A stretch of 64,000 nucleotides of DNA from Basidiobolus meristosporus CBS 931.73. Lineage: Eukaryota > Basidiobolomycota > Basidiobolomycetes > Basidiobolales > Basidiobolaceae. Location: the NCBI GenBank assembly GCA_002104905.1, contig MCFE01000222.1:59402-123401 (forward strand), in the 5' to 3' direction. Below, in pieces: positions 29,201-64,000 of this stretch. Both the position numbers and the translations under genes were made by a program. Numbering within the stretch: position 1 is the stretch's first letter; each line of letters begins with the position of its first letter. Under the pieces are notes generated by a model. That model had not been told where the DNA came from, made no database searches, and saw only the letters and a list, made by a program, of their open reading frames with translations.

Positions 29201-31815
29201 ACTTCTCCATGATCCGGTCGATTTTCTGCGCCTCGCCGGGAAGTCGGAACGACTGGAGGAACTCTCGGAGGGCAGCCACGAAGTTGAGCCCTTTGAAGCT
29301 CATTTGCTCAATGAACGCGTGCATCACTTGGATATTCAAGGAGTCCCCGTCGCCCAAGTACTCTCCTACGGCTGTCTTGCTGAAGGCCGGGGTTTTCTTC
29401 AGAAAAGTGGCAATCGCCGTAGGGTCCTCGGATACAAACCCGTTCTCCATCAGAAACCTGAGCCCCTTCTTGGGATTCAAGTTGAACTGGCGAACGCCTT
29501 TGCTTAGCGTCTGCTTGCGGGAGGTAATGACCTCGAAGCGAGCAGGATCGTCATCCGGGGGGAAAGTGGGAGACAGCGAGGAGGGGCTTCCGCTGCCATG
29601 GTACTGGGAAGCAAAGTTCTTCAGCGAGATGGAGTGCAGAGGGTTTTTGGAGACAATGATTGGGTGTTGTTGAAAGCCGTCCTCGAAAGTGGGCGAGTGA
29701 GGGGGAACCACCTCGACATCCTCGTTGGGCTTCTTCTCCTCGGGCGAGACGCGTCCCCCAGTGGAATGGGGGTCCTTTCCCCAATCGACTAACGACTCGA
29801 TAATAGATACCAGGCACTTCAGCCCCCGAAGCTTGAGTCGATTCTCCTGGACAATGGCAAGGTCGGCGGAGTTGTCGAGAAGAAGGCCGGCCGCATGCGT
29901 CCCGATAATTCCACCAACAGTAGAGCCGGGCTTGCTGGTTCTCCCCTGCGCTATACGGGAAAGGCTGTTTACGATGCGTTCGAAGATGCTGGCTGTGGAG
30001 ATGTCGCAGTCGTAATTCAAATAGATATCAACCAGTGCTTGCGGATGTGAGCAGATCTTGTGCAGCCCTTGAAGAACCATCTGCTTCTGCTTGAATGTTG
30101 CGTTGGGCATCTCTAGGATCCGCAAGTAGATCTCGTTAAACATCAGCTCGATCTCCGACTTCAGGTGGCCCCTGAAGACGTGGAGGATGATCAAGAAGAT
30201 CGATAGGGAGAACTCGAAGAGATGCGTTTCGCTGGAAACCCCGTTCTTGGACAATGAAACGCAGAGGTGCTGGCGTATCAAATCCACAAACAGGTCCTCG
30301 GTTTGGAATGTAGGCCCGGAGTTGTTGAGCATCGAAAGAATCAGCTCGAGAACGAGGCCACGAGCACGGTCAATGGTCGAAATGGTGCTTTCGGCCGGCT
30401 CTTGGTTGGGGAGCTCCGGTGCAATGGACAACTGGCACAATTGGCGGAACACAACAAATACATCGTTCTGTAACACTTTGCTGTAAACACTGGCCAAATC
30501 TGGCCCCGCGCCTCCTTTCTGGACTGCCTCCGTGGGTGCATCAGCTGTCTGCTCAGCTTGTGGTTGAGGGACATCGTCCTCAACACCGTTAGCGTGGCTT
30601 TGGGCTTCATCCAAGGCTTTGGGAGGCTCCGTTTGCGTTGCTTCTTCAGCGGTGGTCACTGAAGAGTCTGAAGCGAGGTGGTATTTCTTGAAAATGGATT
30701 GGAAATCCAGTTCCGGGTATTTCTTGGCCAGCTCGGAGAAGTACTCCATGCGCGAGACCGTTAGGTTAACCATCTGGATTAAGGCTGCTTTGGCAGTCAT
30801 CTGATTGATCGGACTCGAGGAAAATATATACGCATTGCAGCAAGTTTGAAGGGCTTTCATCAAAGGAATTCCGTGGATTTCGCAAGATGTACCGGTCACC
30901 AGAGTTAGTAGTGCTTTAATTACTTGGAGTTCCACAGTGTCTTCGGTTTTGGCTCCGGTATATGACGCGCAAATTGTATCTATTATATTCTCAGCCAAGT
31001 CGTCCTTTTTCTTGTGGGACTCCAGGGTCGACTCCGCTAACTCTGCTAGCTCTCTGATGTAACTCAGGTCGTTTGTACTACTGAAGCAGGTGGTTGGTAC
31101 ATTAGAAGAGGTTAAATTGTTCGAAACAAACAAATCTATAGTCGAAACAGGTGGGGTTCCCTTGAGATATGAGAAGGCAGCCAGCTTCTGAATGGAATCC
31201 AAAGCAATCTCCCGAATCCTAGTGGGCATTGTTGGTGTACAAGCAAGTTTAAATGGAATCCAGTAATTCGTGGCTATCGAAGTGATGTCAAGGTTGTTGT
31301 GTGTCTGTGGGGGTTCTGTAGATGGGGAAGCCGATGAAGACTGCCCTATCTTTGCGTCCTGCGATTCAGAAGGTACCTGCTCATCTTTGGCCACTGTTTC
31401 TGGATGAGCAATCCTCCGAGGCTTGTACAGGCTCACTTTCCACATCTTCCGAAGCCTCAACTTTCTCTTCAGACGAGGGTTCAGCTTTCTGTTCAGGCGA
31501 GGGCTGACCTTTCTCTACAGACGAGGATTCAACTTTCTCCTCAGACGAGGGTTCAGTTTTCTCCTCAGACGAGGGCTCACCTTTCTCCTCAGACGAGGGT
31601 TCTATACCCTCTTCTAGCGAAGGTTCTATATTCTCTCCGGAAGAAGGCTCGACTTTGAGAGGAGTATCTTCGGTGGGAACGAGGTTGCTTGGCACCTCTC
31701 TCGAGACCCGTAGATTTTCACTGGTGTGCTCGCAAGCTTCTTGGAGCTCTTTCTGATGGGCAGCTTCAGCCTCCTTCAGCAAGCGCTCGAGACAAAGTTC
31801 AAGAGTTTTGTTCAT
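26256..31815 (-). CDS. SEC7: Sec7/BIG-family Arf guanine nucleotide exchange factor
   Basis: A trans-Golgi Arf activator driving vesicle budding. The minus-strand model is 31815-31437, a 43-bp intron (GTGAGC..ACAG) and 31393-26256, giving 1838 residues, in the Sec7/BIG1/BIG2 size range. The N-terminus has about eight copies of an acidic octapeptide (EPSSEEK-type). DCB and HUS regions follow, then the Sec7 domain at about residues 750-930 with the glutamic finger in VGEYLGDGD and the FRLPGEAQKIDRIMEKFA helix, then long HDS helical repeats. The intron is short and was chosen because it joins the two frames in phase; a frameshift is the alternative. Confidence 0.92.
31490..31665 (-). repeat. 24-bp coding tandem repeat in the SEC7 N-terminus
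   Basis: About eight in-phase 24-bp units (plus strand CTCCTCAGACGAGGGTTCAG followed by four variable bases) encode acidic octapeptides such as EPSSEEKT and GEPSSEEK. In-frame length means copy number can change without breaking the gene. The segment is probably disordered. Confidence 0.8.
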
Positions 31816-48302: not shown

Positions 48303-48440
48303 TAGGGTAAGACAGTCACCACAGGTAAAATCTTTATTTCAGCTGAAACAAAGAAGCCAGTGCTACTATTGTAGCTTTGATACAAGAGTGTGTAGCCAAG
48401 GTGAATTGGTAGGTATGTTAATAAGGAGAAATGGTAGTTC
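48303..48440 (-). mobile_element. LINE 3'-end fragment
   Basis: On the minus strand this is the last about 135 bp of the LINE family: the end of ORF2 (similar to 55288-55350), AATAAA-like TAAAGATTTTACC, hairpin and GACTGTCTTACCC tail. It is truncated on its 5' side by a copia LTR at 48441. Confidence 0.75.
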
Positions 48441-48801
48441 TGTTGTAAGAGTCTTGGAGATATTGGAAGTGATTGGGAGAACAAGTAGATTATGTGGTTT
48501 CACTTAATGATGATATATATTGATACTGTAAATAGTAAGTAATATTTAAACTTTCACATGGTCTTGGCATAATAAGCATATAGAGTAGACTTGGGAAGAT
48601 CCAAGAACATGTGCACTAAGTTTGGGGCTGTTTGGATAACTTTGAGAGTTTTCATGCTCTGGGTACCTGATGTTTATAGTGAAAATATTCTAAGTAAATT
48701 CCAACAAGGAATTTGGTCAGTATTCCCTGAGATTTGTTAGTAATGATATAAGCAGTCATGTAAGGTAAATATTTAGGTGGAACTAACAAATTTTTGCAAC
48801 A
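48441..48801 (-). repeat. degenerate copia LTR (3' LTR of copy E)
   Basis: Reverse-orientation copia LTR starting TGTTGTAAGAG and ending TTTTTGCAACA, followed on its right by the purine tract and the end of pol, as expected for a 3' LTR of a minus-strand element. It carries a small insertion near 48508-48530. Confidence 0.78.
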
Positions 48802-49745: not shown

Positions 49746-51735
49746 CTTTCCACCCAACTAATTGTTCACACTGACTAGTCCTAATTTTGACCCAAGATAT
49801 TCAGACTTGTCCTTAGCTAATAGTTTGGTAAATATGTCTGCAATCATATCGTCTGTAGAACAGTAAGCTAAGTTAGCCAAGTTTTTCTCTTTAGCTTCAT
49901 GTATGAAATGATGTCTAATATCTATGTGCTTATTTCTAGCATGAGAAGTTGGATTACTACCTAGTAGTATACATCCTTGATTGTCATTGTTAATAGGTGT
50001 TTTTTTGACATAAGCCTAAACCTTTAAAAAGCTTCCTTAGCCACATAACTTCTTCTGTAGGCTCACAGGCTGCCATTTACTCTACCTCTGCGGTAGAAAG
50101 TACTATGGTTGGTTGCTTTTGTGAATTCCATGAAATTGCTCCTTAAGAGTAAAGAAAGGTGTATCCAGTAATGGATCTTCTGTCTTCCAGGTTTTGTCCC
50201 CAATTGGCATCAGAGTATCCCACAAAATCCTTTCTGAATCCTTTCTGAAGTACCTTAAGCAGATATCAGCAGTCCTTTTAGGTATCTGAAAATCCACTTA
50301 ACTGCTTCAATATGATCCAATCCATAGTTCTGGTTGTGCCTGCTGACAACTCCCAATGAGTATGAGATATCTGGATATGTTCCAAGTATGCTATACATTG
50401 AGCTGCTGACCATAGTTTGATAAGGAAAGTCAGGGCTTTCAGATGGCACCAAGCTCTCATGATTTGGTTGTGTCTTGACCAAGTTGGGGTTTGTGTCCAT
50501 TGCGTAGCTGCTAGTTTACAGTCTTCCATTTGGTACTTCTCTAGTATATCTTGAATATACCTAGATTGGCGTAGGGTGATAGTCTTGGTACTTCTGATTA
50601 TGCAGAACTTTATCCCTAAGTAGAAACTTAGTTCTCTTAAGTTGACATCTTCAACTCTTTAGATAGGCTGGATTTAGTCTCTTCCAATATTGCTAGGTTA
50701 TTGGTGGCTGTAATAATATCATCCACATTCAGAGCTAATAGAACTGGATTTACTCTATCTGGCTTATAGTATATACTATAGTCAGCATTACTCCTTTTAA
50801 ACTCAAAGATTCCAAATCAGAGTCAATTTTGCAATTTCAGGCTCTTGGTCATTGTTTGTGTATGTAGAGGCTTTATAAGCTTGTAGACCAAATGAGGGTA
50901 ATCTTGGTCAGCAAATCCATCAGGCTGGTTCATATACATGTCCTTATCAGGTACTCCAATCCAAAAATGCAGCTTTTACATCCATTTGAGGAATAAAAAA
51001 CTTATATTTGGCTGCAATAGCTGATGCTAATCTGAATGAAATTAAACTTGGCTACTGGTGCAAAGGTATCAGTGTAGTCAAGTCCTTTTGTTTGAGAGTA
51101 TCCTTTGGCCACAAGTCTTGCTTTGTATCATTCAACTGTACCATTCAACCTTGTATTTTGTATTAAAGATCCATTTGCATCCAATCGATTTCTGGTTGAT
51201 TGGTAATTTGATCAAGTGCCAAGTTTGATTTTCCATTAGGGCCTGATAATTCTCAGTCATTGCAGATCTCCAAAACTTTGTCTGAGGGCAATTCAAGGTC
51301 TCTTTTACAGTCTGGGGCTCACCAATACGGACCAAGTAGGCATAGGCTAAGCTTTGTACCCTCATTGATATAATAATTTGGGATATTTCTTGTCTAGTTG
51401 GATCTCCAGGTATTTGATACTGGAATGATCACTTCTGGAATATTCCTGGGCACTGATTCAGGCTGAACCATGGTTGTAGAGTCCTCTAGAGTGAAAAGCT
51501 TTCTTTGTTTTGCACTGATCTAATCCTGACAATGGGTGGGCTTCAGATCAGAATTTTGTCATCATCTGATGTCAGTTTTTGTGAAAATTTTGAGTTTTCA
51601 TCAAACAACAAATCCCTAGACTTGATCAGCTTCTGTGCTTCAGTATTGAACAGTCTGTATGCTTTACTCTCATTGCAGTGGCCCAAAAAATATGCTTTTT
51701 ACACTCTTTGGCTCATATTTGGACTGCTTTCTTAG
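49746..51735 (-). pseudogene. degenerate copia pol (copy F: integrase end, RT, RNase H)
   Basis: Minus-strand copia pol with many stops and indels: RNase H near 50100, an RT segment with the catalytic VDD still present at 50718-50726, the region matching VKEALNSPQTKFWRSAM near 51290, and the integrase end near 51700. A LINE 3' end truncates it at about 51735. It is useful as an outgroup for the complete copia element. Confidence 0.85.
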
Positions 51736-52184
51736 GGTTTAGGGTTATGGGGAGACAGTCACCAACAAGTGAGATCTTTATTTCTGTCAGAACAAAGAAG
51801 CCAGCACTACTGTTGTAGCTTTGATACAAGAGTGTATAGCTGAAGGGAATTTGTGGATAAGTTAATCAGAAGTGATGATAGTTCTTCAGTGCTCAAGACA
51901 CTGTTCAGTGGGAAGGAGGGTAGCAAGAGGGTACCAATGATTTGTGAACAACATTAATGAGGGGAATATGATAAGGATTGATATTCATCACAAAGGGAGT
52001 GTGCTGCTTCAGACATTGCTGCCAAAGGTCTAGTCAAGTACATCAGGTAGGCCAGCATAGGTTTTTTTAACTGCAGAATATATTGAGCAAACTTCTTGAC
52101 TTCAGGATCTCCAAGTATAGTTCTCCAGCAGGAGCCAGGTGTAGTGCTGTGTGTTCTCTTTCAGGCCTTGATTAGTGGGGTGTT

Positions 52185-53170
52185 TCAGTGGTAAAGTCTG
52201 AGATATAATCTGGTTCTAAGGTAGAGTAGTCTGATCTTGTAGGGCATATGCCCAAAAGCACCATGAATAGCATGTCTGTAGGGGCATTTGGGCAAATGAG
52301 GCACCAGGGATGTAATGCACCATACTGGAAACTTGTCAAGCTTAGTGCAGTCTCTAGAAGTAAGAGAGAGAAGTGGGCAGCCAAATTCCAGAACAGGGAA
52401 GACAAACTGCCTGAGTAGAACAAGGCAGCAGGGAGCTGACGTTGTAGGAGGAGTTACAGGCAGTAGCTTGTGGAGTGCCTGTCTTGTCAGGATAGTTTTC
52501 TTCTTCAGGTGTGCTCCAGAGTCTAGTCCAGTAGGAAGGAAAGGAAAGCCATGATATGTAGCAGAAACCTGAGCAGGTAGAGTGCAGTTCTCTAAGTTGA
52601 TAGGACAGCCCAAAGGTACTGTCTTTGCAATGGAAAGCTGGAGATTATTCTTCTGCAGATAAAGGTGGATGGTCTGGGTGTCTTGTTGCACATTGTAGGA
52701 GGATATTCTGATGTCATCAGCAAAAAGAGTAAACAGACAGTCAGCTGAGAGTCTTGCAAAATTACTCAGGAAGATGGCAGACAGTATAGGACCAAAAACA
52801 GAGCCTTGAACCACTCCATTAGGAACTGTGTACAGTAGCAGAACATTTGCAAAGGGCCATTCTTCAGGAGTAGAAGCAGGGCTGAGCATAGCCAAAACAG
52901 TGAAAGCAGAAGAGCAGACATGGACTTGATACTGGTATTTGAAAGCTTATTGGAGATTGTGTCCACACCTGTGGCAGTGGAGTTGGGAAGCCTCTTGAGC
53001 ACATTATGTGTTCTTGCTTGATCAGGCACATGTGGGGTTGGCCAAGTCTTGAAGTCAGGATGAAAGCCAGGAGTTGAGTGCTGCTTTGTAGAGAAGAAGA
53101 TGTTAGCCAGCTGTTTTGTTGAAGGTAACTTTCTGGAAGAGAGCCTCATTGCCCTGTAGAGTCTTGACAC
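52185..53170 (-). pseudogene. LINE ORF2 remnant (copy 3)
   Basis: Contains RT motifs GVVQGSVFGPILSAIFLS and LFADDIRISSYN, and the downstream LTSRDCTKLDKF region. Frame breaks occur near 52850 and the APE endonuclease half is absent. It matches the C-terminal 60 percent of the ORF2 at 55288-58041. Confidence 0.82.
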
Positions 53171-53250
53171 TGTTCTTGTTATAGAGTTGGAAGATTGCAG
53201 AGTTAAAGAACTTATAATATGGCCCCAAAGCTAAGTATGCAGAGTGTGGT

Positions 53251-53947
53251 TGTTTTGCATCAACATTTAAAACTTGGCCAATTTCACTCCATTAGAAAAT
53301 GTAGTGCCCTAACTGATTTTCTCTAACTCAAACATAACTAATCCCTGTTATGGTTTATTTATCACTTCTCAGAATCTATTTTTATCTGTCACACCTGATT
53401 AATTTTCATGTGGTCATTATGTACTCAACCAATCTGCAAAGCCTTTCTAAGTGATTAGTCATCTGAGATTTATCCAACCACTTAGCAGTTGCCAATACAT
53501 CAACTGATTAATAATGCAATTTTCATTTACCTTATGCATCTATCAACACCCAAACAGATTTCAATTAGTCCAGCCTCTTGGCGCTTACTAATGCAACTCA
53601 GTCAGGAAAGTATAAGTAAAGTTTACTGAACCTTTTGGTTTTGTGTGTGTCTCAACAAAATTAAATTGTGCTTCAGCAAATTAAGAATTCAACAATTCCA
53701 TTCTAGTTTCCACCCAAGCCTAGCACATCTAGTATTCCCAAGAGCACCATGTCTAGCCTGTATAGCAAACCAACTCTGTTGCCTTTATAGCCCAACTCAA
53801 CTATATACAAAACCAATATTAGACCAGAACTTCTCTGCTGATATTTCTGTCACCCTTGACAATTCTAAGATTCTGCACTTAGTTATTACTTAGGTTCAGT
53901 TAACTCATTCAAGAGATCTATTACACTTTTCTCTTGGATACAACAGA
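53251..53947 (+). mobile_element. non-autonomous element X, plus orientation, 3'-truncated
   Basis: From about 53348 onward this is an inverted relative of element X at 53989-54732 (for example GTTTCCACCCAAGCCTAG versus CTAGGCTTGGATAGAAAC at about 54361). It interrupts LINE copy 3 between GTGTGGT and GAATTGCC. It stops after TCTCTTGGATACAACA, lacking the last about 190 bp including the hairpin tail. The 82-codon frame at 53645 is weakly supported and not called a gene. Confidence 0.65.
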
Positions 53948-53988
53948 GGTGAATTGCCTTGGAGTGATATATGACTGTCAGCAGGAGT

Positions 53989-54732
53989 TAGGGGGAGGGA
54001 AAGTCACCAAGGTAGGTGAAATCTTTATTTGATTTCAGACAAGTCTAACTACAAATAAAGAAGCCAGCTGGGAATAGAAGATTCCCAAAGTAAACACTAA
54101 GCTGAATATGAATAAATCTAAGCTAAAGTTAAGGCAGTGTTGTATCCAAGAGAAAGTGTAATAAAATCTTGAATGGTTTAACTGAACCAAAGGGACAATT
54201 AAGTGCAGAATCTTAGAATTGTCAGAGAGTGGCGGAAATATTAGCAGAAAGATTCTGATCTAATATTGGTCTTGGATATAGCTGGGTTGGCTATAAAGGC
54301 AATGATATTTGTTTGCTAGGCAGGCTAGGCTTGGTGTTCTTTGGAGTGCTAGATATACTAGGCTTGGATAGAAACTAGAATGGAATTGTTGGATTCTTAT
54401 TTTTGCTGAGACAGAATCTTAATTTTGTTGAGACACACACTAAACCAAAAGGTTCAGTACACTTTATTTATACTTTTCTGATCAAGTTGAATTAGTAAGC
54501 GTCAAGGGACTGGACTGATTGAAATCAATTTGGGTGTTCATAGGTGCATAAGATAAATGAAAATTACATCATCAATCAACTGATGTCTTGGCAACTGCAC
54601 AGTGGTTGGATAGATCTCAGATGACTAATCACCTGGGAAGGCTTGGCAGATAGGTTGATAACGTGATGACCATTTGAAAATAGATCAGGTGTGATAGCTA
54701 AAAATAGATTCTGAGGTGGGATCAAATAAACT
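53989..54732 (-). mobile_element. non-autonomous LINE-dependent element X (SINE-like)
   Basis: About 745 bp without a supported coding region. Its sense (minus) 3' end is AATAAAGATTTCACC, hairpin, GGTGACTTTCCCTCCCCCTAAC, almost the same as the LINE 3' end. Its 5' end (TTTGATCCCACC) resembles the LINE 5' end (TTTGATCCCGCC at 63704-63715). This suggests mobilisation by the LINE machinery. It is followed on the 5' side by four TTAGGG-type units. Confidence 0.7.
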
Positions 54733-55222
54733 GGGTTAGGGTTAGGGTTAGGGGTAGGGGGAGGAAAGTCACCAAGTGGTGAAATCTTTATTTTACTTAT
54801 GACAAGTATCTAAAGAAGCCAAGTTAATCTGAAGTAATTCCTAGAAAAATAGGTCTGAGAGATATCTTCCTGGTAAGCCAGGTCTGAGAGTTGAGAAGCT
54901 GAGTGGTACTATATTTCCTAGTTAGCTAGGTCTGAGAGAGGTTTCCTGGAAAGCCAGGCCTGAGAAGTGAGAATCTGAATATATCTGAGCTAAGTTATAC
55001 TGGTTTGCGGTAGCTGGATTGTGGCCGGAATGGCCAGTAGACTGGGGGAACTGAGATGAATTTCTGGGCAATCACTGGCCAAATTTACTAGGCAAACTTG
55101 GCCAATTAGCATTTCAAGGATTTCAGCCAATCAGAGCCTTTACTTTGCCCAATGGTTGATCAAGCCATCTCCCAATGAGCACACATCAATTTATTAATCA
55201 AATTTTGCTGGATCCAGGATTT
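54733..55222 (-). mobile_element. non-autonomous LINE-dependent element Y (SINE-like)
   Basis: About 490 bp with the same sense 3' end (AATAAAGATTTCACCACTTGGTGA) and the longest telomere-like tail in the window (plus 54733-54757, GGGTTAGGGTTAGGGTTAGG then GGTAG). The body has an internal repeat around GGTCTGAGAG (54858, 54887, 54929) and is otherwise unrelated to X. No coding region is supported. Confidence 0.68.
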
Positions 55223-55287
55223 GGGTTAGGGGGAGACAGTCACCAACAGGTGAAATCTTTATTTCAGTTGAAACAAAGAAGCCAGCG

Positions 55288-58041
55288 CTACTGTTGTAGC
55301 TTTGATACAAGAGTGTGTAGCTGAGGGGAATTTGTAGGTAAGTTAATAAGAAGTGATGATAGCTCTTCAGTGCTCAAGACACTGTTCAGTGGGAAGGGGG
55401 GTAGCAAGAGAGGCAAGAATGACTTGTGAACAACATTAATGAGGGGAATGTGATAAGGATTGATATTCATCATAAATGGAGTGTGCTGCTGCAGATATTG
55501 CTGCCAAAGGTCTGTCAAGTACTTCAGGTAGGCCAGCTTGGGTTTTTCAGACTGCAGAATAAAGTGAGCAAACTTCTTGACTTCAGGATCTCGAAGTATA
55601 GTTCTCCAGCAGGAGCCAGGTGTTGTGTGGTGTGTTCTCTTCCAGGCCTTAATCAGTGGGTTGTTGCAGTTGTGAAGTCTGAGGTATAATCTGGTTCTAA
55701 GGTAGAGAAGTCTGATCTTATAGGGCATAAACCCAAAAGCACCAAGAATAGCATGTCTGTAGGGGCATTCAGGCAAATGAGGCACCAAGGAGGTAATGCA
55801 CCATACTGCAAACTTGTCAAGCTTAGTGCAGTCTCTAGAAGTAAGAGAGAGAAGTGGTAAGCCAAATTCCAGGACAGGGAAGACAAACTGCTTGAGTAGA
55901 AGGAGGCAGCTGGGAGCTGAAGTTGTAGGAGGAGTAACAGCCAGTAGCTTGTGGAGTGCCTGTCTTGCTAGGATAATTCTCTTCTTCAGGTGTGCTCCAG
56001 AGTCTAGTCCAGTAGGAAGGAAAGGAAAGCCAAGATATGTAGCAGAAACCTGAGCAGGTAGAGTGGAGTTCTCCAAGTTGATGGGAGAGCCCAAAGGTAC
56101 TGTCTTTGCAATGGAAAGCTGGAGATTATTCTTCTGCAGATACTGGTGGATGGTCTGGGAGTCTTGTTGCACATTGGAGGAGGATATTCTGATGTCATCA
56201 GCAAAGAGAGTAACCAGGCAGTCAGCTGAGAGTCTTTGGAAGTCATTCAGGAAGATGGCAAACAGTATAGGACCAAGCACAGAGCCTTGAACCACTCCAT
56301 TAGGAACTGAGAACACAGCTGAGTGCTCACTTGGGTGCATAATTCTTGCTTGTGGATCCAGAAACAGAGACCTGACAAGGAGGGTGAGAGAAGTGCTGGA
56401 GAAGCATTGCAACTTGGACCAAAGCAGATTTCTGTCAACTGAATCAAAGGCCTTAGTAATATCAAATAGAACAGAGGGATACTTGCACTGGAGAGAGTGA
56501 TCTTGGCTAAGTATGACTGCATATTCCAAGGAGAGGCCAGGAACAAAGCCAAACTGTGCAGGATGAAACTTGAGGGAGTCAGAGTAGAGCTCCTGAGCAA
56601 GCAGAAGCTCAAACACCTTTCTGCAGGTGGACAGCAGAGATATTGGCCTGTAGGAGCTAGGATCCAGGTGCTTTCCTTTACCCTTGTACAGTGGCTGAAC
56701 ATTTGCAAAGGACCATTCCTCAGGAGTAGAAAGCTGGGCTGAGCATTGCTGAAACAGTGGAAGCAGAAGTGCAGACATGGCCTTGGTACTAGCCTTCAGA
56801 AGCTCATAAGAGATTGTGTCCACACCTGGAGCAGTAGAGTTGGGAAGCCTCTTGAGCACATTATGGATTCTCCTTTGATCAAGTGCAAGTGGGATGGGCA
56901 GAGTCTTGAAGTCAGGATGAAAGCCAGGAGTTGAGTACTGCTTTGTAGAGAAGAAGATGTTAGCCAGCTGTTCTGTTGAAGGTAACTTCCTGGAAGAGGG
57001 CCTCATTGCCCTGTAGAGTCTTGATACTGTTCTTGTTATAGAGTTGGAAGATTGCAGAGGCAAAGAACTCATAATATGATCCCAGAGCTGAGTATGCAGA
57101 GTGTGGTGAATTGCCTTGGAGTGGTGTATTGCTGTCAGGAGGAGTTTCTCTGTTTTTGGGTTAGGGAAACTCAGGTAGCTTTGTTGCAGGGCTGAAACAA
57201 TGGATTCCCATTTTCTTGAGGTAACAGCAGTAGTCTTGCATGGCAGTGAGAGGGAGGCAGACACCAGAATCAGATGCTTCACAAAGAGCCAGGCATAGTT
57301 GAGATCATCTGGCAGAGAAAGTAGCAAACTGGCAAGCTTCAAGTAGTTCCCAAAGTCTTTCTTCTGATTCTTGGTAGCTTTGTGGGTGAGCACAGTAAGT
57401 TTTGGCAGCTTCTTCTTCACAACTGGTTGCATAGAAAGGGACCAGGCTGGGTGGTCAGATGCTCTCAAGGATCCTAGCTCAGCTCCAGAGAATTGCTTGA
57501 CTTCATTCACAAAGTAGAGGGCAGCAGCAGAAGGGCAGATCCAGTCAACACATCTTTTCTCAGATTGAGCACCTAGTGCTAGCAGATGGCTTTCTCTCAG
57601 GAAGTTCAGTAGGAATGTAGACCTTGGCTTCATTCTTGCAGTCAGAGTAGTCTTGTTCTCAGGATGGGGAATGTTGAGATCTCCAAGCAAGATAACAGGT
57701 GTTGATATAGATTGCTGGTATTGCTGAACTTTCTGGCATATAACTTGCACTTCCTGAAGGGCAAGACTTGGAGGCAGATAGCAGAGCACCAGACTGATAG
57801 TTGGCAACTGGAGAGCAGCACAGTAAGGGGAGTAAAGAGGAACACAGAGCTGAGGAGTATTGATGGTAGAAGAGATGAAGCAGATAGAGGAGGTATTCTT
57901 TGTTCTAGGAGTAGAAAAGCAATATAGATTAGTCAAAAGTATAGAGGGTAGCTGGACATCAATCAAACACAGGAGGGAAAATCTTGAAAGAAGTCTCTCT
58001 AGAGTTGGTCTTGATGGCTGTATGCTGTTGCAGTTAAGCAA
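55288..58041 (-). CDS. LINE ORF2: APE endonuclease, reverse transcriptase
   Basis: A 917-residue protein, intact in this copy. The N-terminal APE-type endonuclease starts at LLNCNS-like LNCNSIQ and shows LLGDLNIPH (about residue 120), DWICPS and ASDHPAWS (about 195), which nick target DNA. The reverse transcriptase shows YRPISLLSTCRKVFE, FDITKAFDSVDRNLLW, GVVQGSVLGPILFAIFLNDF and the catalytic LFADDIRIS (about 612). The C-terminal about 200 residues are conserved between copies but have no recognised motif, and no RNase H was identified. The clade looks I/Tad/jockey-like; exact placement is uncertain. The stop codon lies only about 60 bp before the 3' tail. Confidence 0.93.
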   Translation of the reverse strand: MLNCNSIQPSRPTLERLLSRFSLLCLIDVQLPSILLTNLYCFSTPRTKNTSSICFISSTINTPQLCVPLYSPYCAALQLPTISLVLCYLPPSLALQEVQVICQKVQQYQQSISTPVILLGDLNIPHPENKTTLTARMKPRSTFLLNFLRESHLLALGAQSEKRCVDWICPSAAALYFVNEVKQFSGAELGSLRASDHPAWSLSMQPVVKKKLPKLTVLTHKATKNQKKDFGNYLKLASLLLSLPDDLNYAWLFVKHLILVSASLSLPCKTTAVTSRKWESIVSALQQSYLSFPNPKTEKLLLTAIHHSKAIHHTLHTQLWDHIMSSLPLQSSNSITRTVSRLYRAMRPSSRKLPSTEQLANIFFSTKQYSTPGFHPDFKTLPIPLALDQRRIHNVLKRLPNSTAPGVDTISYELLKASTKAMSALLLPLFQQCSAQLSTPEEWSFANVQPLYKGKGKHLDPSSYRPISLLSTCRKVFELLLAQELYSDSLKFHPAQFGFVPGLSLEYAVILSQDHSLQCKYPSVLFDITKAFDSVDRNLLWSKLQCFSSTSLTLLVRSLFLDPQARIMHPSEHSAVFSVPNGVVQGSVLGPILFAIFLNDFQRLSADCLVTLFADDIRISSSNVQQDSQTIHQYLQKNNLQLSIAKTVPLGSPINLENSTLPAQVSATYLGFPFLPTGLDSGAHLKKRIILARQALHKLLAVTPPTTSAPSCLLLLKQFVFPVLEFGLPLLSLTSRDCTKLDKFAVWCITSLVPHLPECPYRHAILGAFGFMPYKIRLLYLRTRLYLRLHNCNNPLIKAWKRTHHTTPGSCWRTILRDPEVKKFAHFILQSEKPKLAYLKYLTDLWQQYLQQHTPFMMNINPYHIPLINVVHKSFLPLLLPPFPLNSVLSTEELSSLLINLPTNSPQLHTLVSKLQQ

Positions 58042-58056
58042 CAGAACTTCAGGTAG

Positions 58057-59310
58057 TCAGGCAGAGGTTGTAGCTTCTTCAGAGGCAGCATTGACAATGT
58101 GACCTGCAGAGTCCCAGAGCTCTTCAAATGGTGCATCACTTAAGTCAGCAAGGAGGGAAATGGCATGATTCTTGAGGAAGTATGCCACATCATAGGAGGG
58201 GGCTTGTCTCTTGATGGCAGCAAAGAAAGACAGAATGGCAACATGGGCTGGAGGCTTGTTGAACAGTAGAGAGTCAGAGGATTCAGATTCTTCAGGCACT
58301 ATCTTGAAGTCAGTTTTCAGCCAGTTAAGGTTCTTCTCCACAAAGGCAACAAATGGGTCAGCAATGTTTTGGTCTAGGATAACCTCCAGAATCTTCCCTT
58401 TTCTCCAGGCCAGGTTGACAATTCTTGAGAGCTGAATATTGCATGCCTTGAGTGCTTTCCTGATGTTGGAAATGGGAGTCCAGGGAACTTGCTTCAAGTA
58501 CACCACAGTCCAGGTAGAAGCTGGTGGTAGGTTTGCTGGGGGCTTGTAAGTCCTTCTGTGTTGCAATGGAGCTGCAGTAGTCAGATTGGAGTCCACATTC
58601 TCAGTAGAGGGTTTTCTTGATGTGTCTTGCTGAATGGTACTGGAGCTGGATGTGCTGATAATTCTTGCTAGAACCTTGCCTGCATAAGTCTGAGGTATAG
58701 CTGAGGTGACTGTAGAGGTGGTGGCAGCTGGTGCAGGTGGAGAGGCAGAAACTGAAGCAGGAACTGAGGTCACCTGGGAGAAGGCAGTAGAAGCAGGTTT
58801 TCTGGGAGGAACAGAGTTCACTATCCAGTTGTTCTGTAAAACACTGGAGTAGCTTTTCTGTGGAACAGGATCTTGCTCTTGAACAGGAACAGAAGCAGGA
58901 GGCTGGGGCTGAGCAGTAGTGGTAAGGCAGTGGCACTCCAAGGAAGCTTTTTGCAAGGCATCTCTGGCAGTTTCAGGGCAGTATTGGCTTCATTCTTGAG
59001 CTTCTTGCATTGGGCATCCAGTCTCTTGTTTTCAATAGCCAGGGCAGTATTGGCAGCCTCTAAATCAGCAATTCTCTTCTCAATTGCAAGGAATCTCTGA
59101 AGAAATGCATCAGTAGAAGTGCTGGCATCTGGAGAGCAGTGGCAGGAATAGAGTCCATTGACAGTGGGCTTCTTGGAGGCAAGGAAAGTGGACTGGCAGA
59201 TTCAGGCACAAAAGGAGATATCCTGGCAGGAGGAGAAGGAGTATCCAAGGCAGTACAGAGCATCTGTGGTGAGCAGCAGCAGGGAGGCAGCTGTAGAGGA
59301 GGAGTGTGAG
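58057..59310 (-). pseudogene. LINE ORF1 (E1), frameshifted and 5'-truncated
   Basis: Homologue of ORF1 at 62139-63674. The last 299 residues (58956-58057) are open. Upstream of that, one T is missing near 58974 (three versus four T in E2) and one G near 59131, which break the frame. The N-terminal zinc-binding part is missing because the element is truncated at 59310. ORF1 ends 15 bp before the ORF2 start. Confidence 0.85.
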
Positions 59311-59350
59311 GGGGGAGACAGTCACCAACAGGTGAAATCTTTATTTCAGT
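59311..59350 (-). promoter_or_regulatory. LINE 3' end: AATAAA, hairpin and tail
   Basis: Sense strand reads AATAAAGATTTCACC, TGTT loop, GGTGACTGTC, then a C-rich tail. UCACC pairs with GGUGA. The same block closes E1 (55228-55265), X (53989-54032), Y (54755-54800), copy 3 (51747-51783) and the fragment at 48303-48345. It is probably the site recognised by the LINE reverse transcriptase. Confidence 0.65.
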
Positions 59351-59369
59351 TGAAACAAAGAAGCCAGCG

Positions 59370-62123
59370 CTACTGTTGTAGCTTTGATACAAGAGTGTGT
59401 AGCTGAGGGGAATTTGTAGGTAAGTTAATAAGAAGTGATGATAGTTCTTCAGTGCTCAAGACACTGTTCAGTGGGAAGGGGGGTAGCAAGAGAGGTAAGA
59501 ATGACTTGTGAACAACATTAATGAGGGGAATGTGATAAGGATTGATATTCATCATAAAGGGAGTGTGCTGCTGCAGATATTGCTGCCAAAGGTCTGTCAA
59601 GTACTTCAGGTAGGCCAGCTTGGGTTTTTCTGACTGCAGAATAAATTCTGCAAACTTCTTGACTTCAGGATCTCCAAGTATAGTTCTCCAGCAGGAGCCA
59701 GGTGTTGTGTGGTGTGTTCTCTTCCAGGCCTTAATCAGTGGGTTGTTGCAGTGGTGAAGTCTGAGGTATAATCTGGTTCTAAGGTAGAGAAGTCTGATCT
59801 TATAGGGCATAAACCCAAAAGCACCAAGAATAGCATGTCTGTAGGGGCATTCAGGCAAATGAGGCACCAAGGAGGTAATGCACCATACTGCAAACTTGTC
59901 AAGCTTAGTGCAGTCTCTAGAAGTAAGAGAGAGAAGTGGTAAGCCAAATTCCAGGACAGGGAAGACAAACTGCTTGAGTAGAAGAAGGCAGCTGGGAGCT
60001 GAAGTTGTAGGAGGAGTAACAGCCAGTAGCTTGTGGAGTGCCTGTCTTGCCAGGATAATTCTCTTCTTCAGGTGTGCTCCAGAGTCTAGTCCAGTAGGAA
60101 GGAAAGGAAAGCCAAGATATGTAGCAGAAACCTGAGCAGGTAGAGTGGAGTTCTCCAAGTTGATGGGAGAGCCCAAAGGTACTGTCTTTGCAATGGAAAG
60201 CTGGAGATTATTCTTCTGCAGATACTGGTGGATGGTCTGGGAGTCTTGTTGCACATTGGAGGAGGATATTCTGATGTCATCAGCAAAGAGAGTAACCAGG
60301 CAGTCAGCTGAGAGTCTTGGGAAATCATTCAGGAAGATGGCAAACAGTATAGGACCAAGCACAGAGCCTTGAACCACTCCATTAGGAACTGAGAACACAG
60401 CTGATTGCTCACTTGGGTGCAGAATTCTTGCTTGTGGATCCAGAAACAGAGACCTGACAAGGAGGGTGAGAGAGGTACTGGAGAAGCATTGCAACTTGGA
60501 CCAAAGCAGATTTCTGTCAACTGAATCAAAGGCCTTAGTAATATCAAACAGAACTGAGGGATACTTGCACTGGAGAGAGTGATCTTGGCTAAGTATGACT
60601 GCATATTCCAAGGAGAGGCCAGGAACAAAGCCAAACTGTGCAGGATGAAACTTGAGGGAGTCAGAGTAGAGCTCCTGAGCAAGCAGAAGCTCAAACACCT
60701 TTCTGCAGGTGGGCAGCAGAGATATTGGCCTGTAGGAGCTAGGATCCAGGTGCTTTCCTTTACCCTTGTACAGTGGCAGAACATTTGCAAAGGACCATTC
60801 CTCAGGAGTAGAAAGCTGGGCTGAGCATTGCTGAAACAGTGGAAGCAGAAGTGCAGACATGGCCTTGGTACTAGTCTTCAGAAGCTCATAGGAGATTGTG
60901 TCCACACCTGGAGCAGTAGAGTTGGGAAGCCTCTTGAGCACATTATGGATTCTCCTTTGATCAAGTGCAAGTGGGATGGGCAGAGTCTTGAAGTCAGGAT
61001 GAAAGCCAGGAGTTGAGTACTGCTTTGTAGAGAAGAAGATGTTAGCCAGCTGTTCTGTTGAAGGTAACTTCCTGGAAGAGGGCCTCATTGCCCTGTAGAG
61101 TCTTGATACTGTTCTTGTTATAGAGTTGGAAGATTGCAGAGGCAAGGAACTCATAATATGATCCCAGAGCTGAGTATGCAGAGTGTGGTGAATTGCCTTG
61201 GAGTGGTGTATTGCTGTCAGGAGGAGTTTCTCTGTTTTTGGGTTAGGGAAACTCAGGTAGCTTTGTTGCAGGGCTGAAACAATGGATTCCCATTTTCTTG
61301 AGGTAACAGCAGTAGTCTTGCATGGCAGTGAGAGGGAGGCAGACACCAGAATCAGATGCTTCACAAAGAGCCAGGCATAGTTGAGATCATCTGGCAGAGA
61401 AAGTAGCAAACTGGCAAGCTTCAAGTAGTTCCCAAAGTCTTTCTTCTGATTCTTGGTAGCTTTGTGGGTGAGCACAGTAAGTTTTGGCAGCTTCTTCTTC
61501 ACAACTGGTTGCATAGAAAGGGACCAGGCTGGGTGGTCAGAGGCTCTCAAGGATCCTAGCTCAGCTCCAGAGAATTGCTTAACTTCATTCACAAAGTAGA
61601 GGGCAGCAGCAGAAGGGCAGATCCAGTCAACACATCTTTTCTCAGATTGAGCACCTAGTGCTAGCAGGATGGCTTTCTCTCAGGAAGTTCAGTAGGAATG
61701 TAGACCTTGGCTTCATTCTTGCAGTCAGAGTAGTCTTGTTCTCAGGATGGGGAATGTTGAGATCTCCAAGCAAGATAACAGGTGTTGATATAGATTGCTG
61801 GTATTGCTGAACTTCTGGCATATAACTTGCACTTCCTGAAGGGCAAGACTTGGAGGCAGATAGCAGAGCACCAGACTGATAGTTGGCAACTGGAGAGCAG
61901 CACAGTAAGGGGAGTAAAGAGGAACACAGAGCTGAGGAGTATTGATGGTAGAAGAGATGAAGCAGATAGAGGAGGTATTCTTTGTTCTAGGAGTAGAAAA
62001 GCAATATAGATTAGTCAAAAGTATAGAGGGTAGCTGAACATCAATCAAACACAGGAGGGAAAATCTTGAAAGAAGTCTCTCTAGAGTTGGTCTTGATGGC
62101 TGTATGCTGTTGCAGTTAAGCAA
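59370..62123 (-). pseudogene. LINE ORF2 (E2) with two compensating single-base indels
   Basis: Begins at 62123 like E1 ORF2. It loses one T near 61811 (AACTTCTGG versus AACTTTCTGG) and gains one G near 61668 (AGCAGGATGG versus AGCAGATGG). Between these the frame is shifted for about 48 codons and meets a stop at 61725. Downstream it is open from 61592 to 59370 with all RT motifs, including LFADDIRIS. Either this copy is inactive or these are sequence errors in short homopolymers. Confidence 0.88.
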
Positions 62124-62138
62124 CAGAACTTCAGGTAG

Positions 62139-63674
62139 TCAGGCAGAGGTTGTAGCTTCTTCAGAGGCAGCATTGACAATGTGACCTGCAGAGTCCCAGA
62201 GCTCTTCAAATGGTGCATCACTTAAGTCAGCAAGGAGGGAAATGGCATGGTTCTTGAGGAAGTATGCCACATCATAGGAGGGGGCTTGTCTCTTGATGGC
62301 AGCAAAGAAAGACAGAATGGCAACATGGGCTGGAGGCTTGTTGAACAGTAGAGAGTCAGAGGATTCAGATTCTTCAGGCACTATCTTGAAGTCAGTTTTC
62401 AGCCAGTTAAGGTTCTTCTCCACAAAGGCAACAAATGGGTCAGCAATGTTTTGGTCTAGGATAACCTCCAGAATCTTCCCTTTTCTCCAGGCCAGGTTGA
62501 CAATTCTTGAGAGCTGAATATTGCATGCCTTGAGTGCTTTCCTGATGTTGGAAATGGGAGTCCAGGGAACTTGCTTCAAGTACACCACAGTCCAGGTAGA
62601 AGCTGGTGGTAGGTTTGCTGGGGGCTTGTAAGTCCTTCTGTGTTGCAATGGAGCTGCAGTAGTCAGATTGGAGTCCACATTCTCAGTAGAAGGTTTTCTT
62701 GATGTGTCTTGCTGAATGGTACTGGAGCTGGATGTGCTGATAATTCTTGCTAGAACCTTGCCTGCATAAGTCTGAGGTATAGCTGAGGTGACTGTAGAGG
62801 TGGTGGCAGCTGGTGCAGGTGGAGAGGCAGAAACTGAAGCAGGAACTGAGGTCACCTGGGAGAAGGCAGTAGAAGCAGGTTTTCTGGGAGGAACAGAGTT
62901 CACTATCCAGTTGTTCTGTAAAACACTGGAGTAGCTTTTCTGTGGAACAGGATCTTGCTCTTGAACAGGAACAGAAGCAGGAGGCTGGGGCTGAGCAGTA
63001 GTGGTAAGGCAGTGGCACTCCAAGGAAGCTTTTTGCAAGGCATCTCTGGCAGTTTTCAGGGCAGTATTGGCTTCATTCTTGAGCTTCTTGCATTGGGCAT
63101 CCAGTCTCTTGTTTTCAATAGCCAGGGCAGTATTGGCAGCCTCTAAATCAGCAATTCTCTTCTCAATTGCAAGGAATCTCTGAAGAAATGCATCAGTAGA
63201 AGTGCTGGCATCTGGGAGAGCAGTGGCAGGAATAGAGTCCATTGACAGTGGGCTTCTTGGAGGCAAGGAAAGTGGACTGGCAGATTCAGGCACAAAAGGA
63301 GATATCCTGGCAGGAGGAGAAGGAGTATCCAAGGCAGTAACAGAGGCAATTCTTGTTGGTGAAGCAGCAGCAGGGGAGGCAAGCCTGTTCAGAAACTGGG
63401 CAGGAGAGAGTGCTTGAGGAGAGGGAGTCTTCAGCTTGCCAAGCATGTCTTCCATCAGAGTGATACCAATATTCCTGGTGCATTTGCAGAGAAAAGTAAG
63501 CTTCCTGAGTCTGCCAGCTCTTCCATTCCTTCTGATAGTTCCTTTGTTTCCACAGTTGGGGCAAGAAATCTTCTTGACAGACTTGTCAAAGCAATCAAGA
63601 ACCTTCCTTTCAGGTGTAGTGGGCTCCTGTTGAGGTTTTGGTGGCATATCCAGAGTTTCAGCTTCAAATTTCAA
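62139..63674 (-). CDS. LINE ORF1: zinc-binding, coiled-coil nucleic-acid-binding protein
   Basis: A 511-residue protein, probably the RNA chaperone of the element. An N-terminal Cys-rich motif (CPNC at about 38-41, then NGRAGR and LCKC at about 62-65) resembles a zinc ribbon. Residues about 165-215 form a coiled coil (IEKRIADLEAANTALAIENK). A long Pro/Ser/Thr-rich linker follows. The C-terminal part (WTVVYLKQVPWTPISNIRKA, VNLAWRKGKILEVI) could be an RRM-like fold. It ends 15 bp before ORF2 in another frame, suggesting reinitiation or termination-coupled translation. Confidence 0.85.
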   Translation of the reverse strand: MKFEAETLDMPPKPQQEPTTPERKVLDCFDKSVKKISCPNCGNKGTIRRNGRAGRLRKLTFLCKCTRNIGITLMEDMLGKLKTPSPQALSPAQFLNRLASPAAASPTRIASVTALDTPSPPARISPFVPESASPLSLPPRSPLSMDSIPATALPDASTSTDAFLQRFLAIEKRIADLEAANTALAIENKRLDAQCKKLKNEANTALKTARDALQKASLECHCLTTTAQPQPPASVPVQEQDPVPQKSYSSVLQNNWIVNSVPPRKPASTAFSQVTSVPASVSASPPAPAATTSTVTSAIPQTYAGKVLARIISTSSSSTIQQDTSRKPSTENVDSNLTTAAPLQHRRTYKPPANLPPASTWTVVYLKQVPWTPISNIRKALKACNIQLSRIVNLAWRKGKILEVILDQNIADPFVAFVEKNLNWLKTDFKIVPEESESSDSLLFNKPPAHVAILSFFAAIKRQAPSYDVAYFLKNHAISLLADLSDAPFEELWDSAGHIVNAASEEATTSA

Positions 63675-63716
63675 TTTTTGAGATTTTTGGGTGATTTTTG
63701 ATGGGCGGGATCAAAA

Positions 63717-63730
63717 TTAGGGTTAGGGTT
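63717..63730. repeat. telomere-type TTAGGG units at the LINE 5' boundary
   Basis: TTAGGGTTAGGGTT directly adjoins the 5' end of E2 and is followed by GCGCGCTGTGAC. Two units only. It could be the tail of a lost upstream element or a remnant of a telomeric target or addition. Confidence 0.7.
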
Positions 63731-63774
63731 GCGCGCTGTGACTGCTTTTTACGATCGCAAGGTCAGAATCCTAG

Positions 63775-64000
63775 GAAAAAATAAAAATAGTTAGTAAAGG
63801 TGATTTAATGGATGGATGGATGGATTCGGAGTCAGATTCAATCAAAAAATCAAATCGTTGACTAATTTAAAGAGGAAAAAATAAAAATAGTTAGTAAAGG
63901 TGATTTAATGGATGGATGGATGGATTCGGAGTCAGATTCAATCAAAAAATCAAATCGTTGACTAATTTAAAGAGGAAAAATAAAAATAGTTAGTAAAGTG
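63775..64000. repeat. satellite with 100-bp period
   Basis: Two full 100-bp units and the start of a third, each beginning AAAAAATAAAAATAGTTAG and containing a triple GGAT run (ATGGATGGATGGATTCGG). The first two are virtually identical; the third has lost one A. The array continues beyond the right edge. It is close to the telomere-type units and may be subtelomeric. Confidence 0.85.

What the first reader, a model, noticed from the sequence alone, without database searches (positions are those of the whole stretch)
51732..63730. LINE/SINE family whose 3' tails are telomere-type CCCTAA repeats, arranged head-to-tail
Seen: five minus-strand elements (copy 3, X, Y, E1, E2) lie in the same orientation, one after another, and the sense 3' ends of most carry CCCTAA-type units (E2's 3' end, joined to truncated E1, has only the C run); E2 also has TTAGGGTTAGGGTT at its 5' boundary. 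On the plus strand each addition reads TTAGGG, then antisense element, then the next. Known: telomere-associated LINEs exist (silkworm TRAS/SART, Magnaporthe MoTeR, Drosophila HeT-A). Inference: RNA ending in CCCUAACCC could be primed by a G-rich telomeric 3' end, building serial arrays with 5' truncation such as E1. The alternative is that CCCTAA is just a simple 3' tail, because copy 3 and the 48303 fragment sit among copia sequence. I do not know of a described fungal family with this exact layout.
Basis: partly seen in the sequence, partly recalled or inferred. Interest (0 to 1): 0.86.

Follow-up and report, generated by a model that had tools for sequence, protein, structure and literature searches.

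The report
Fungal jumping genes building chromosome ends
In the fungus Basidiobolus meristosporus, a jumping gene and several short hangers-on that share its RNA tail sit almost only near chromosome ends, facing the same way and stacked one on another, which suggests that they are added to worn or broken ends alongside ordinary telomeres.

Summary
The window's right edge is the end of a 123,401-bp contig of Basidiobolus meristosporus. A LINE and two SINE families (X, Y) lie there head to tail, 5' ends outward, with 3' tails of C-run plus CCCTAA. It is genome-wide: the LINE 3' end has 594 exact copies (559/35 by strand), Y 393 (372/21), X 152 (133/19); a copia control is 449/463. Of listed places on contigs of at least 100 kb and known length, 39 of 39 LINE, 26 of 26 Y and 22 of 23 X lie within 20 kb of an end; copia 11 of 28. 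Eight of 10 TTAGGG caps read start directly on these elements. Where an element abuts a truncated older one, the older one's missing part never resumes beyond it (0 of 18): end addition, not insertion. LINE tails hold at most 1.5 exact telomere repeats in 87 of 90 junctions. LINE and SINEs share a two-hairpin 3' end. It acts like MoTeR/FoTeR and HeT-A but has another endonuclease type: a new variant of a known kind. RNA priming is inferred.

The parts
59310..63735 (-). LINE copy E2 (body; its 5' UTR runs on to the window and contig end); ORF2 is frame-shifted
63773..63998 (-). 100-bp tandem repeats of the LINE 5' UTR (2.3 units, cut by the contig end)
   Evidence: same repeats then a TTAGGG array on C96
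63717..63728 (-). internal AACCCTAACCCTAA-type stretch of the LINE 5' UTR
62139..63674 (-). E2 ORF1 (Cys-rich N-terminus), ends in TGA followed by CTA
59310..59315 (-). E2 3' C run, joined without CCCTAA to about 20 nt and then truncated E1
55229..59289 (-). LINE copy E1, 5'-truncated, 99% identical to E2
55288..58041 (-). E1 ORF2: APE-type endonuclease region and reverse transcriptase (open frame starts after the TGA at 58057-58059)
55223..55228 (-). E1 3' telomere-type tail, joined to SINE Y at about position 60 of Y
54757..55222 (-). SINE Y, 5'-truncated
54733..54756 (-). SINE Y 3' tail with several CCCTAA-type units
53991..54138 (-). SINE X, 5'-truncated; tail TTAG at 53987-53990
51750..53251 (-). 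LINE copy 3 (two pieces with an internal deletion); a further LINE piece at 53948-53989
51732..51749 (-). copy 3 3' tail, CCCTAA-type with variants
48310..48441 (-). old LINE 3' fragment, 89% identical

Best explanation
A telomere-specific non-LTR retrotransposon (LINE) of Basidiobolus and at least two SINEs (X, and tRNA-like Y) are reverse-transcribed onto chromosome ends. SHOWN from sequence: location near contig ends, one orientation (3' end inward, 5' end outward), stacking, 5' truncation at the next element's tail, no resumption of the target beyond the new element, TTAGGG caps directly on these elements, and a shared two-hairpin 3' end followed by a C run and CCCTAA. INFERRED: the element protein recognises the two hairpins; the RNA's 3' end (about C5-6 UAACCCUAA) pairs by a few bases with the exposed 3' end of a worn, broken or briefly healed chromosome; reverse transcription runs outward; telomerase (a TERT domain is present) later adds TTAGGG to the new, often 5'-truncated end. 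The endonuclease is probably weak or not needed (catalytic Glu to Asp). ORF2 is probably made by read-through of an in-frame UGA-CUA as an ORF1-ORF2 fusion.
For: Strand: 559/35 LINE, 372/21 Y, 133/19 X against 449/463 copia. Distance: 39 of 39 LINE places on 24 contigs of at least 100 kb lie within 20 kb of an end, Y 26 of 26, X 22 of 23. Caps: 8 of 10 TTAGGG arrays read start on a family element. 0 of 18 testable junctions resume the target. 102 pieces in one orientation, 1 of them opposite (some loci overlap). 5 of 38 family targets are hit at the very 5' terminus of a full-length Y. Strict tails at most 9 nt in 87 of 90 LINE junctions. Microhomology mean 1.25 vs 0.74 nt, P 0.004. Hairpins. 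TERT. Glu to Asp in 3 of 3 family proteins, Glu in 5 of 5 others.
Against: No RNA or read data. Two arrays lie mid-contig (C558, C726). Junction overlaps of at least 1 or at least 2 nt are not clearly above chance (P about 0.06). With degenerate units allowed, 12 of 90 LINE and 12 of 41 Y tails exceed 9 nt, so some targets were real telomere repeats. Only 10 of 18 right contig ends read carry a TTAGGG array, so distance to a contig end is not always distance to a chromosome end. SINE Y's fold is weak.
Confidence: 0.8

Rival explanations
1. Insertion into telomere tracts by endonuclease nicking (TRAS/SART- or MoTeR-like), followed by breakage of long interstitial TTAGGG tracts, so that mainly junctions with about 2 units or fewer survive.
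For: MoTeR paper: tandem elements are separated by half a unit to more than 20 units, and tracts of three or more units promote breakage (PMC7367193, passages). Some junctions here hold 3-7 units (L074, L103, L111). An APE-type region is present, with G-D-x-N and S-D-H kept.
Against: Most LINE tails sit directly on non-telomeric sequence; the lengths 3 and 9 nt (ending in TAA) are the commonest classes (18 and 19 of 90) rather than a smooth fall; the catalytic Glu is Asp. This rival also yields terminal arrays, so it differs only in how the primer arises.
Confidence: 0.3
2. Telomerase first heals a broken end with one or two repeats, and the LINE/SINE RNA then primes on those repeats; the tail is telomerase product, not element template.
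For: Terminal caps also start with TTAGGG-type register on truncated elements; TERT present; Y often sits on several repeats (12 of 41 over 9 nt).
Against: Would predict a broader spread of LINE tail lengths than 87 of 90 at 9 nt or less (strict).
Confidence: 0.3
3. Head-to-tail arrays are mainly copied by recombination between subtelomeres, not by serial retrotransposition.
For: Some junctions recur on several contigs (duplicates were collapsed), and Y arrays have a near-constant 525-534-bp spacing on C96.
Against: 89 distinct LINE junctions with varied targets and tail lengths; caps directly on truncated elements. Recombination may spread arrays but does not create the junctions.
Confidence: 0.1
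4. Contig-break artefact: ordinary repeats appear at contig ends because assemblies break in repeats.
For: 1311 contigs; several right ends stop inside a LINE (C29, C69, C91, C291). The copia control is also somewhat enriched at ends (11 of 28 against 21% expected).
Against: Assembly breaks give no fixed orientation: copia is 449/463, the LINE 559/35. TTAGGG caps sit on the elements.
Confidence: 0.03

Closest known systems
MoTeR1/MoTeR2 (Magnaporthe oryzae)
   Same: Fungal, telomeric, 5' ends nearest the chromosome end, head to tail, an autonomous and a non-autonomous partner sharing ends, truncated copies, telomere-like stretch in the element (PMC7367193, passages)
   Different: MoTeR1 has a restriction-enzyme-like endonuclease of the CRE/SLACS kind; here an N-terminal APE-type region, and none of the CRE-type motifs scanned for. 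Partners here are SINEs, one with a tRNA-like head
FoTeRs (Fusarium oxysporum)
   Same: Chromosome-end location, tandem repeats upstream, TAACCC at 3' junctions (PMC12857005, abstract and sections 3, 16, 19)
   Different: REL endonuclease; 3' junctions carry about 3-7 (up to 8) repeats, here mostly 1.5 or fewer
HeT-A/TART/TAHRE (Drosophila)
   Same: Head-to-tail arrays, 3' ends toward the centromere, addition to ends (PMC10088271, passages; PMC5537684, abstract start)
   Different: Poly(A) tails and no telomerase there; here C-run/CCCTAA tails and a TERT domain
SART1/TRAS (Bombyx)
   Same: Telomeric LINEs; short telomere-like RNA stretches may anneal to the target (PMC7265360, passages)
   Different: Insert inside TTAGG tracts and rely on poly(A); here no poly(A) tail at the junctions read
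Athena-type Penelope-like elements
   Same: Priming from exposed chromosome ends, then telomere repeats on the truncated 5' end (PMC3846280, passages)
   Different: RT there shares ancestry with telomerase RT; here a LINE-type RVT_1 with an APE-type region

Membership tests
Non-LTR retrotransposon (LINE) | LINE-type reverse transcriptase with intact [FY]xDD | tested here: met
   RVT_1 2.5e-25, LINE-1 ORF2p best in PDB, FADD
Non-LTR retrotransposon (LINE) | 5'-truncated copies with a constant 3' end | tested here: met
Non-LTR retrotransposon (LINE) | APE-type endonuclease with all catalytic residues | tested here: inconclusive
   Exo_endo_phos_2 3.4e-4, below its cut-off; Glu column is Asp in 3 of 3 family proteins
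SINE (family Y) | pol III A and B boxes in a tRNA-like head | tested here: inconclusive
   B box 0 and A box 1 mismatch to recalled consensuses; ARAGORN and Rfam find nothing
SINE (families X, Y) | 3' end shared with a partner LINE | tested here: met
   shared sequence and hairpins
MoTeR/FoTeR group | C-terminal REL endonuclease (CCHC-like motif, RHD/N, R/KPD) | tested here: not met
   motif scan of E1 ORF2 empty (regular expressions only); APE-type region N-terminal
MoTeR/FoTeR group | at chromosome ends, 5' end outward | tested here: met
HeT-A/TART-type telomere system | 3' poly(A) tail at the junction and no telomerase | tested here: not met
   C-run/CCCTAA tails, TERT domain
TRAS/SART | insertion within telomeric tracts, poly(A) tail | tested here: not met
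Penelope-like elements | Penelope-type RT | tested here: not met
   LINE-type RVT_1 and LINE-1 matches; no Penelope reference was compared directly
End-primed (endonuclease-independent) retrotransposition | no target sequence resumes beyond the new copy | tested here: met
   0 of 18
End-primed (endonuclease-independent) retrotransposition | RT uses a free DNA end as primer | not testable with these tools
   needs biochemistry

The most novel reading that the evidence does not exclude
The LINE and SINE RNAs carry a built-in, telomerase-like template of about 1.5 repeats (C-run UAACCCUAA) at the 3' end, so that one LINE protein with several small RNAs forms a second, telomerase-like end-healing system that works beside TERT and helps to keep some hundreds of chromosome ends.
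Probability: 0.35. Interest if true: 0.87.

Novelty: new variant of a known kind. Interest (0 to 1): 0.73.

Why it matters
It adds an early-diverging fungal lineage and a LINE with an APE-type region to the short list of telomere-building retrotransposons. It appears to come with SINEs, so a small RNA plus a reverse transcriptase acting in trans would work at chromosome ends, which is formally what telomerase is. Tail lengths and junctions make the primer-template question directly testable. [quoted passage not shown] the roughly 280 TTAGGG arrays estimated here would fit many ends, though haplotypes may be counted twice.

Tried and rejected
Ordinary dispersed LINE: rejected by location and strand. 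Contig-break artefact: rejected by strand and TTAGGG caps. Tail as a long telomere tract: rejected for most LINE junctions, open for some Y. E2's TTAGGG as 5' boundary: rejected (internal). 'AATAAAG' as a poly(A) signal: it is one arm of hairpin 1. Rfam and ARAGORN on SINE Y loci gave nothing (Rfam on L013 only; ARAGORN on L013, L072, L026). A MAFFT alignment of five 3' ends did not line up the stem arms (X was given without its 5' arm), so pairs were not counted; fold support rests on single-sequence folds, Y's being weak (z -1.85; 10 of 200 shuffles as good). The LINE clade name stays undecided because no labelled references were at hand. C726 exception: the piece fetched upstream holds no LINE match and reads by eye as copia integrase-type sequence, so its 5' end stays unresolved. 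The similarity search with DNA scored 40 of 114 candidates, gave one orientation only, and missed the window's own copy, so exact-pattern counts were used instead.

Literature (listings unless a passage is cited). Basidiobolus with telomere: 3 papers. Basidiobolus with retrotransposon: 9 papers, 7 listed; one was searched for words and holds nothing on telomeric elements there. Five phrases such as 'telomeric SINE': 7 papers, none on SINEs at telomeres by title or start of abstract. Subscription papers and preprints are not covered by that library.
Full report
WHERE IT IS. The window is bases 59,402-123,401 of contig C450 in an 89.0-Mb, 1311-contig genome, and 123,401 is the contig's last base. 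A partial protein from contig C535 is 100% identical to an NCBI protein of Basidiobolus meristosporus CBS 931.73 on a contig of the same length, 287,976 bp. That this is an early-diverging (zygomycete-grade) fungus is recalled.

ANATOMY. On the minus strand lie LINE copies E2, E1 and copy 3, with SINEs Y and X between them. E1 is 99% identical to E2, so activity is probably recent. The full LINE has a 5' UTR with 100-bp tandem repeats, a unique stretch and an internal AACCCTAACCCTAA; ORF1 with a Cys-rich N-terminus; an in-frame TGA; ORF2 with an APE-type region and an RT; then a short 3' UTR. In E2 ORF2 is frame-shifted; in E1 ORF1 is 5'-truncated. SINE Y starts with a tRNA-like head (B box 0 and A box 1 mismatch to recalled consensuses), though Rfam and ARAGORN report nothing there.

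DISTRIBUTION. The 35-mer of the LINE 3' end has 559 forward and 35 reverse exact matches; SINE Y 372/21; SINE X 133/19; a copia pattern from the same genome 449/463. Forward means that the element is antisense, so its 5' end points right. The tool lists the first 100 places of each. Among the 100 LINE places, 39 are on 24 contigs of 100 kb or more: all 37 forward ones lie within 18,240 bp of the right end, the 2 reverse ones 1,365 and 2,136 bp from the left end. Of listed places on contigs of at least 100 kb whose length I had, Y has 26 of 26 and X 22 of 23 within 20 kb of an end (22-23% expected; the X exception, on C1, is about 22 kb away); copia has 11 of 28 (21% expected) and 4 of 28 by the orientation-aware measure. 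Lengths were known mostly for contigs fetched because of LINE or SINE hits. A similarity search scored 40 of 114 candidates, all in one orientation, and missed the window's own copy; of the 30 fetched, 24 lie on contigs of at least 50 kb, 22 of them within 8.3 kb of the left end with the 5' end pointing left, and 2 not: C558 (97,813 of 218,243) and C726 (59,123 of 69,561). C558 is a head-to-tail array inside a contig, perhaps an internalised or misjoined end. C291 carries arrays at both ends, 5' ends outward.

TELOMERES. (TTAGGG)3 has 8002 forward and 103 reverse overlapping matches. Ten caps hold 28.8 matches on average, so about 280 arrays (rough). Of 18 right contig ends read (C1; 17), 10 end in a TTAGGG array, and 8 of these arrays start directly on a family element: truncated LINE (C36, C40, C62), 5' terminus of Y (C52, C83), X (C22, C25), LINE 5' UTR repeats (C96). 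Of the other two, C23 sits on a minisatellite and C1 on a short unique stretch beside a LINE piece. The 17 were mostly chosen because they hold LINE hits. Seven left ends read (C80, C142, C291, C450, C500, C535, C735) have no array. A TERT domain is present on C880 (two matches over the cut-off).

JUNCTIONS. In 30 loci, the window and five contig-end pieces, 102 element pieces were mapped and 1 of them (LINE 5' UTR repeats in L012) is antisense to the array; some loci overlap, so some pieces count twice. Many pieces are 5'-truncated where the next, more distal element's tail begins. If an element had inserted into a longer one, the missing part should resume beyond the new element's 5' end; it does so in 0 of 18 testable junctions (in two of these the missing part matched elsewhere within the 400 bp upstream, not at the junction). 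Of 89 distinct LINE junctions, 38 have LINE, X or Y as target, and 5 of these fall on the first three bases of a full-length Y. On C96 Y copies follow at 525-534 bp, tails joined to the next Y's first bases (L137-L139). Tails after the C run, in strict TAACCC register: at most 9 nt in 87 of 90 LINE, 21 of 22 X and 35 of 41 Y junctions; with degenerate units allowed, at most 9 nt in 78 of 90, 20 of 22 and 29 of 41. Lengths 3 and 9 (ending in TAA) are the commonest LINE classes (18 and 19 of 90), and 73 of 90 have 4-6 C after the constant GTCTC. Overlap between tail and target exceeds a random-join model in the mean (1.25 vs 0.74 nt, P 0.004, 32 junctions, gaps set to 0) but not clearly in counts of at least 1 or at least 2 nt (P about 0.06).

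PROTEIN. RVT_1 at 2.5e-25; Exo_endo_phos_2 at 3.4e-4, under its cut-off; best PDB match LINE-1 ORF2p. Five relatives at 47-79% identity come from unnamed contigs, and another Basidiobolus RT is 49% identical over 59% of the RT region searched. In a tree of 42 RTs they form one clade (100/100) whose sister of 5 rows holds a Mucor velutinosus protein (joint node 100/98, midpoint root). In the alignment the endonuclease's catalytic Glu column reads Asp in 3 of 3 family proteins covering it and Glu in 5 of 5 others, while G-D-x-N and S-D-H are kept; which residue is catalytic is recalled, and a weakened nuclease is an inference. The ORF1 stop is TGA in 100 of 100 listed of 150 matches (99 TGA-CTA, 1 TGA-TTA), although the pattern also allowed TGG (the copies are young, so this is weak evidence). 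After the stop, ORF2 has no ATG before codon 142, past the first nuclease motifs, so read-through is likelier than AUG restart. UGA-CUA as a strong read-through context is recalled.

MECHANISM. Most likely: the protein binds the two hairpins of LINE or SINE RNA; the RNA's C-run CCCUAA end pairs by a few bases with a bare or barely telomeric DNA 3' end; cDNA grows outward and often stops early; the end is then capped by telomerase or receives the next element. The main rivals are nicking inside telomere tracts plus later loss of long interstitial tracts, as described for MoTeRs (PMC7367193, passages), and prior healing by telomerase. I give the end-addition reading 0.8 overall and the built-in template idea 0.35.

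COMPARISON. Like MoTeR and FoTeR it is fungal, telomeric and 5'-outward, with tandem repeats upstream in FoTeR and telomere-like DNA in MoTeR1; but those have REL endonucleases, and E1 ORF2 has none of the motifs scanned. FoTeR 3' junctions carry about 3-7 units, up to 8 in truncated copies. SART1 RNA may anneal through short telomere-like stretches but relies on poly(A). Penelope-like Athena elements prime from exposed ends with a different RT. A 2023 survey of telomeric retrotransposons names MoTeR1 for fungi and does not hold the word SINE. No description of a Basidiobolus telomeric element was found in the searches named.

Noticed in passing
whole genome: TTAGGG and the elements are overwhelmingly on one strand (8002/103; 559/35): contigs nearly always carry the chromosome end on the right. 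Probably assembler orientation; unexplained.
   Followed up: partly
L026, L027, L046, L085: Another repeat ending in ...CACCTACACCCTAA lies in the arrays between LINE and SINE Y; perhaps a further family with a telomere-type tail.
   Followed up: no
window 53353-53945 and about 54139-54737: A ~600-bp repeat in inverted copies (84% identical) splits LINE copy 3 and SINE X; related copies in L025 and L039.
   Followed up: partly
L079 (C142:1-500), P0211: A more distant LINE lineage of the same kind seems to exist in this genome (P0211 is 49% identical over part of the RT).
   Followed up: no
P0212: A Basidiobolus gene model with a carnitine acyltransferase domain also carries a stretch 95% identical to the LINE RT: probably a LINE piece beside a gene or a fused model.
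   Followed up: no
L163 (C558:95,100-96,312) and L013 (C726): Two arrays lie inside contigs, not near an end: possible internalised ends, fusions or misjoins.
   Followed up: partly
window 31457-31650: A 24/72-bp tandem repeat at the edge of a 1734-aa ORF on the minus strand.
   Followed up: no
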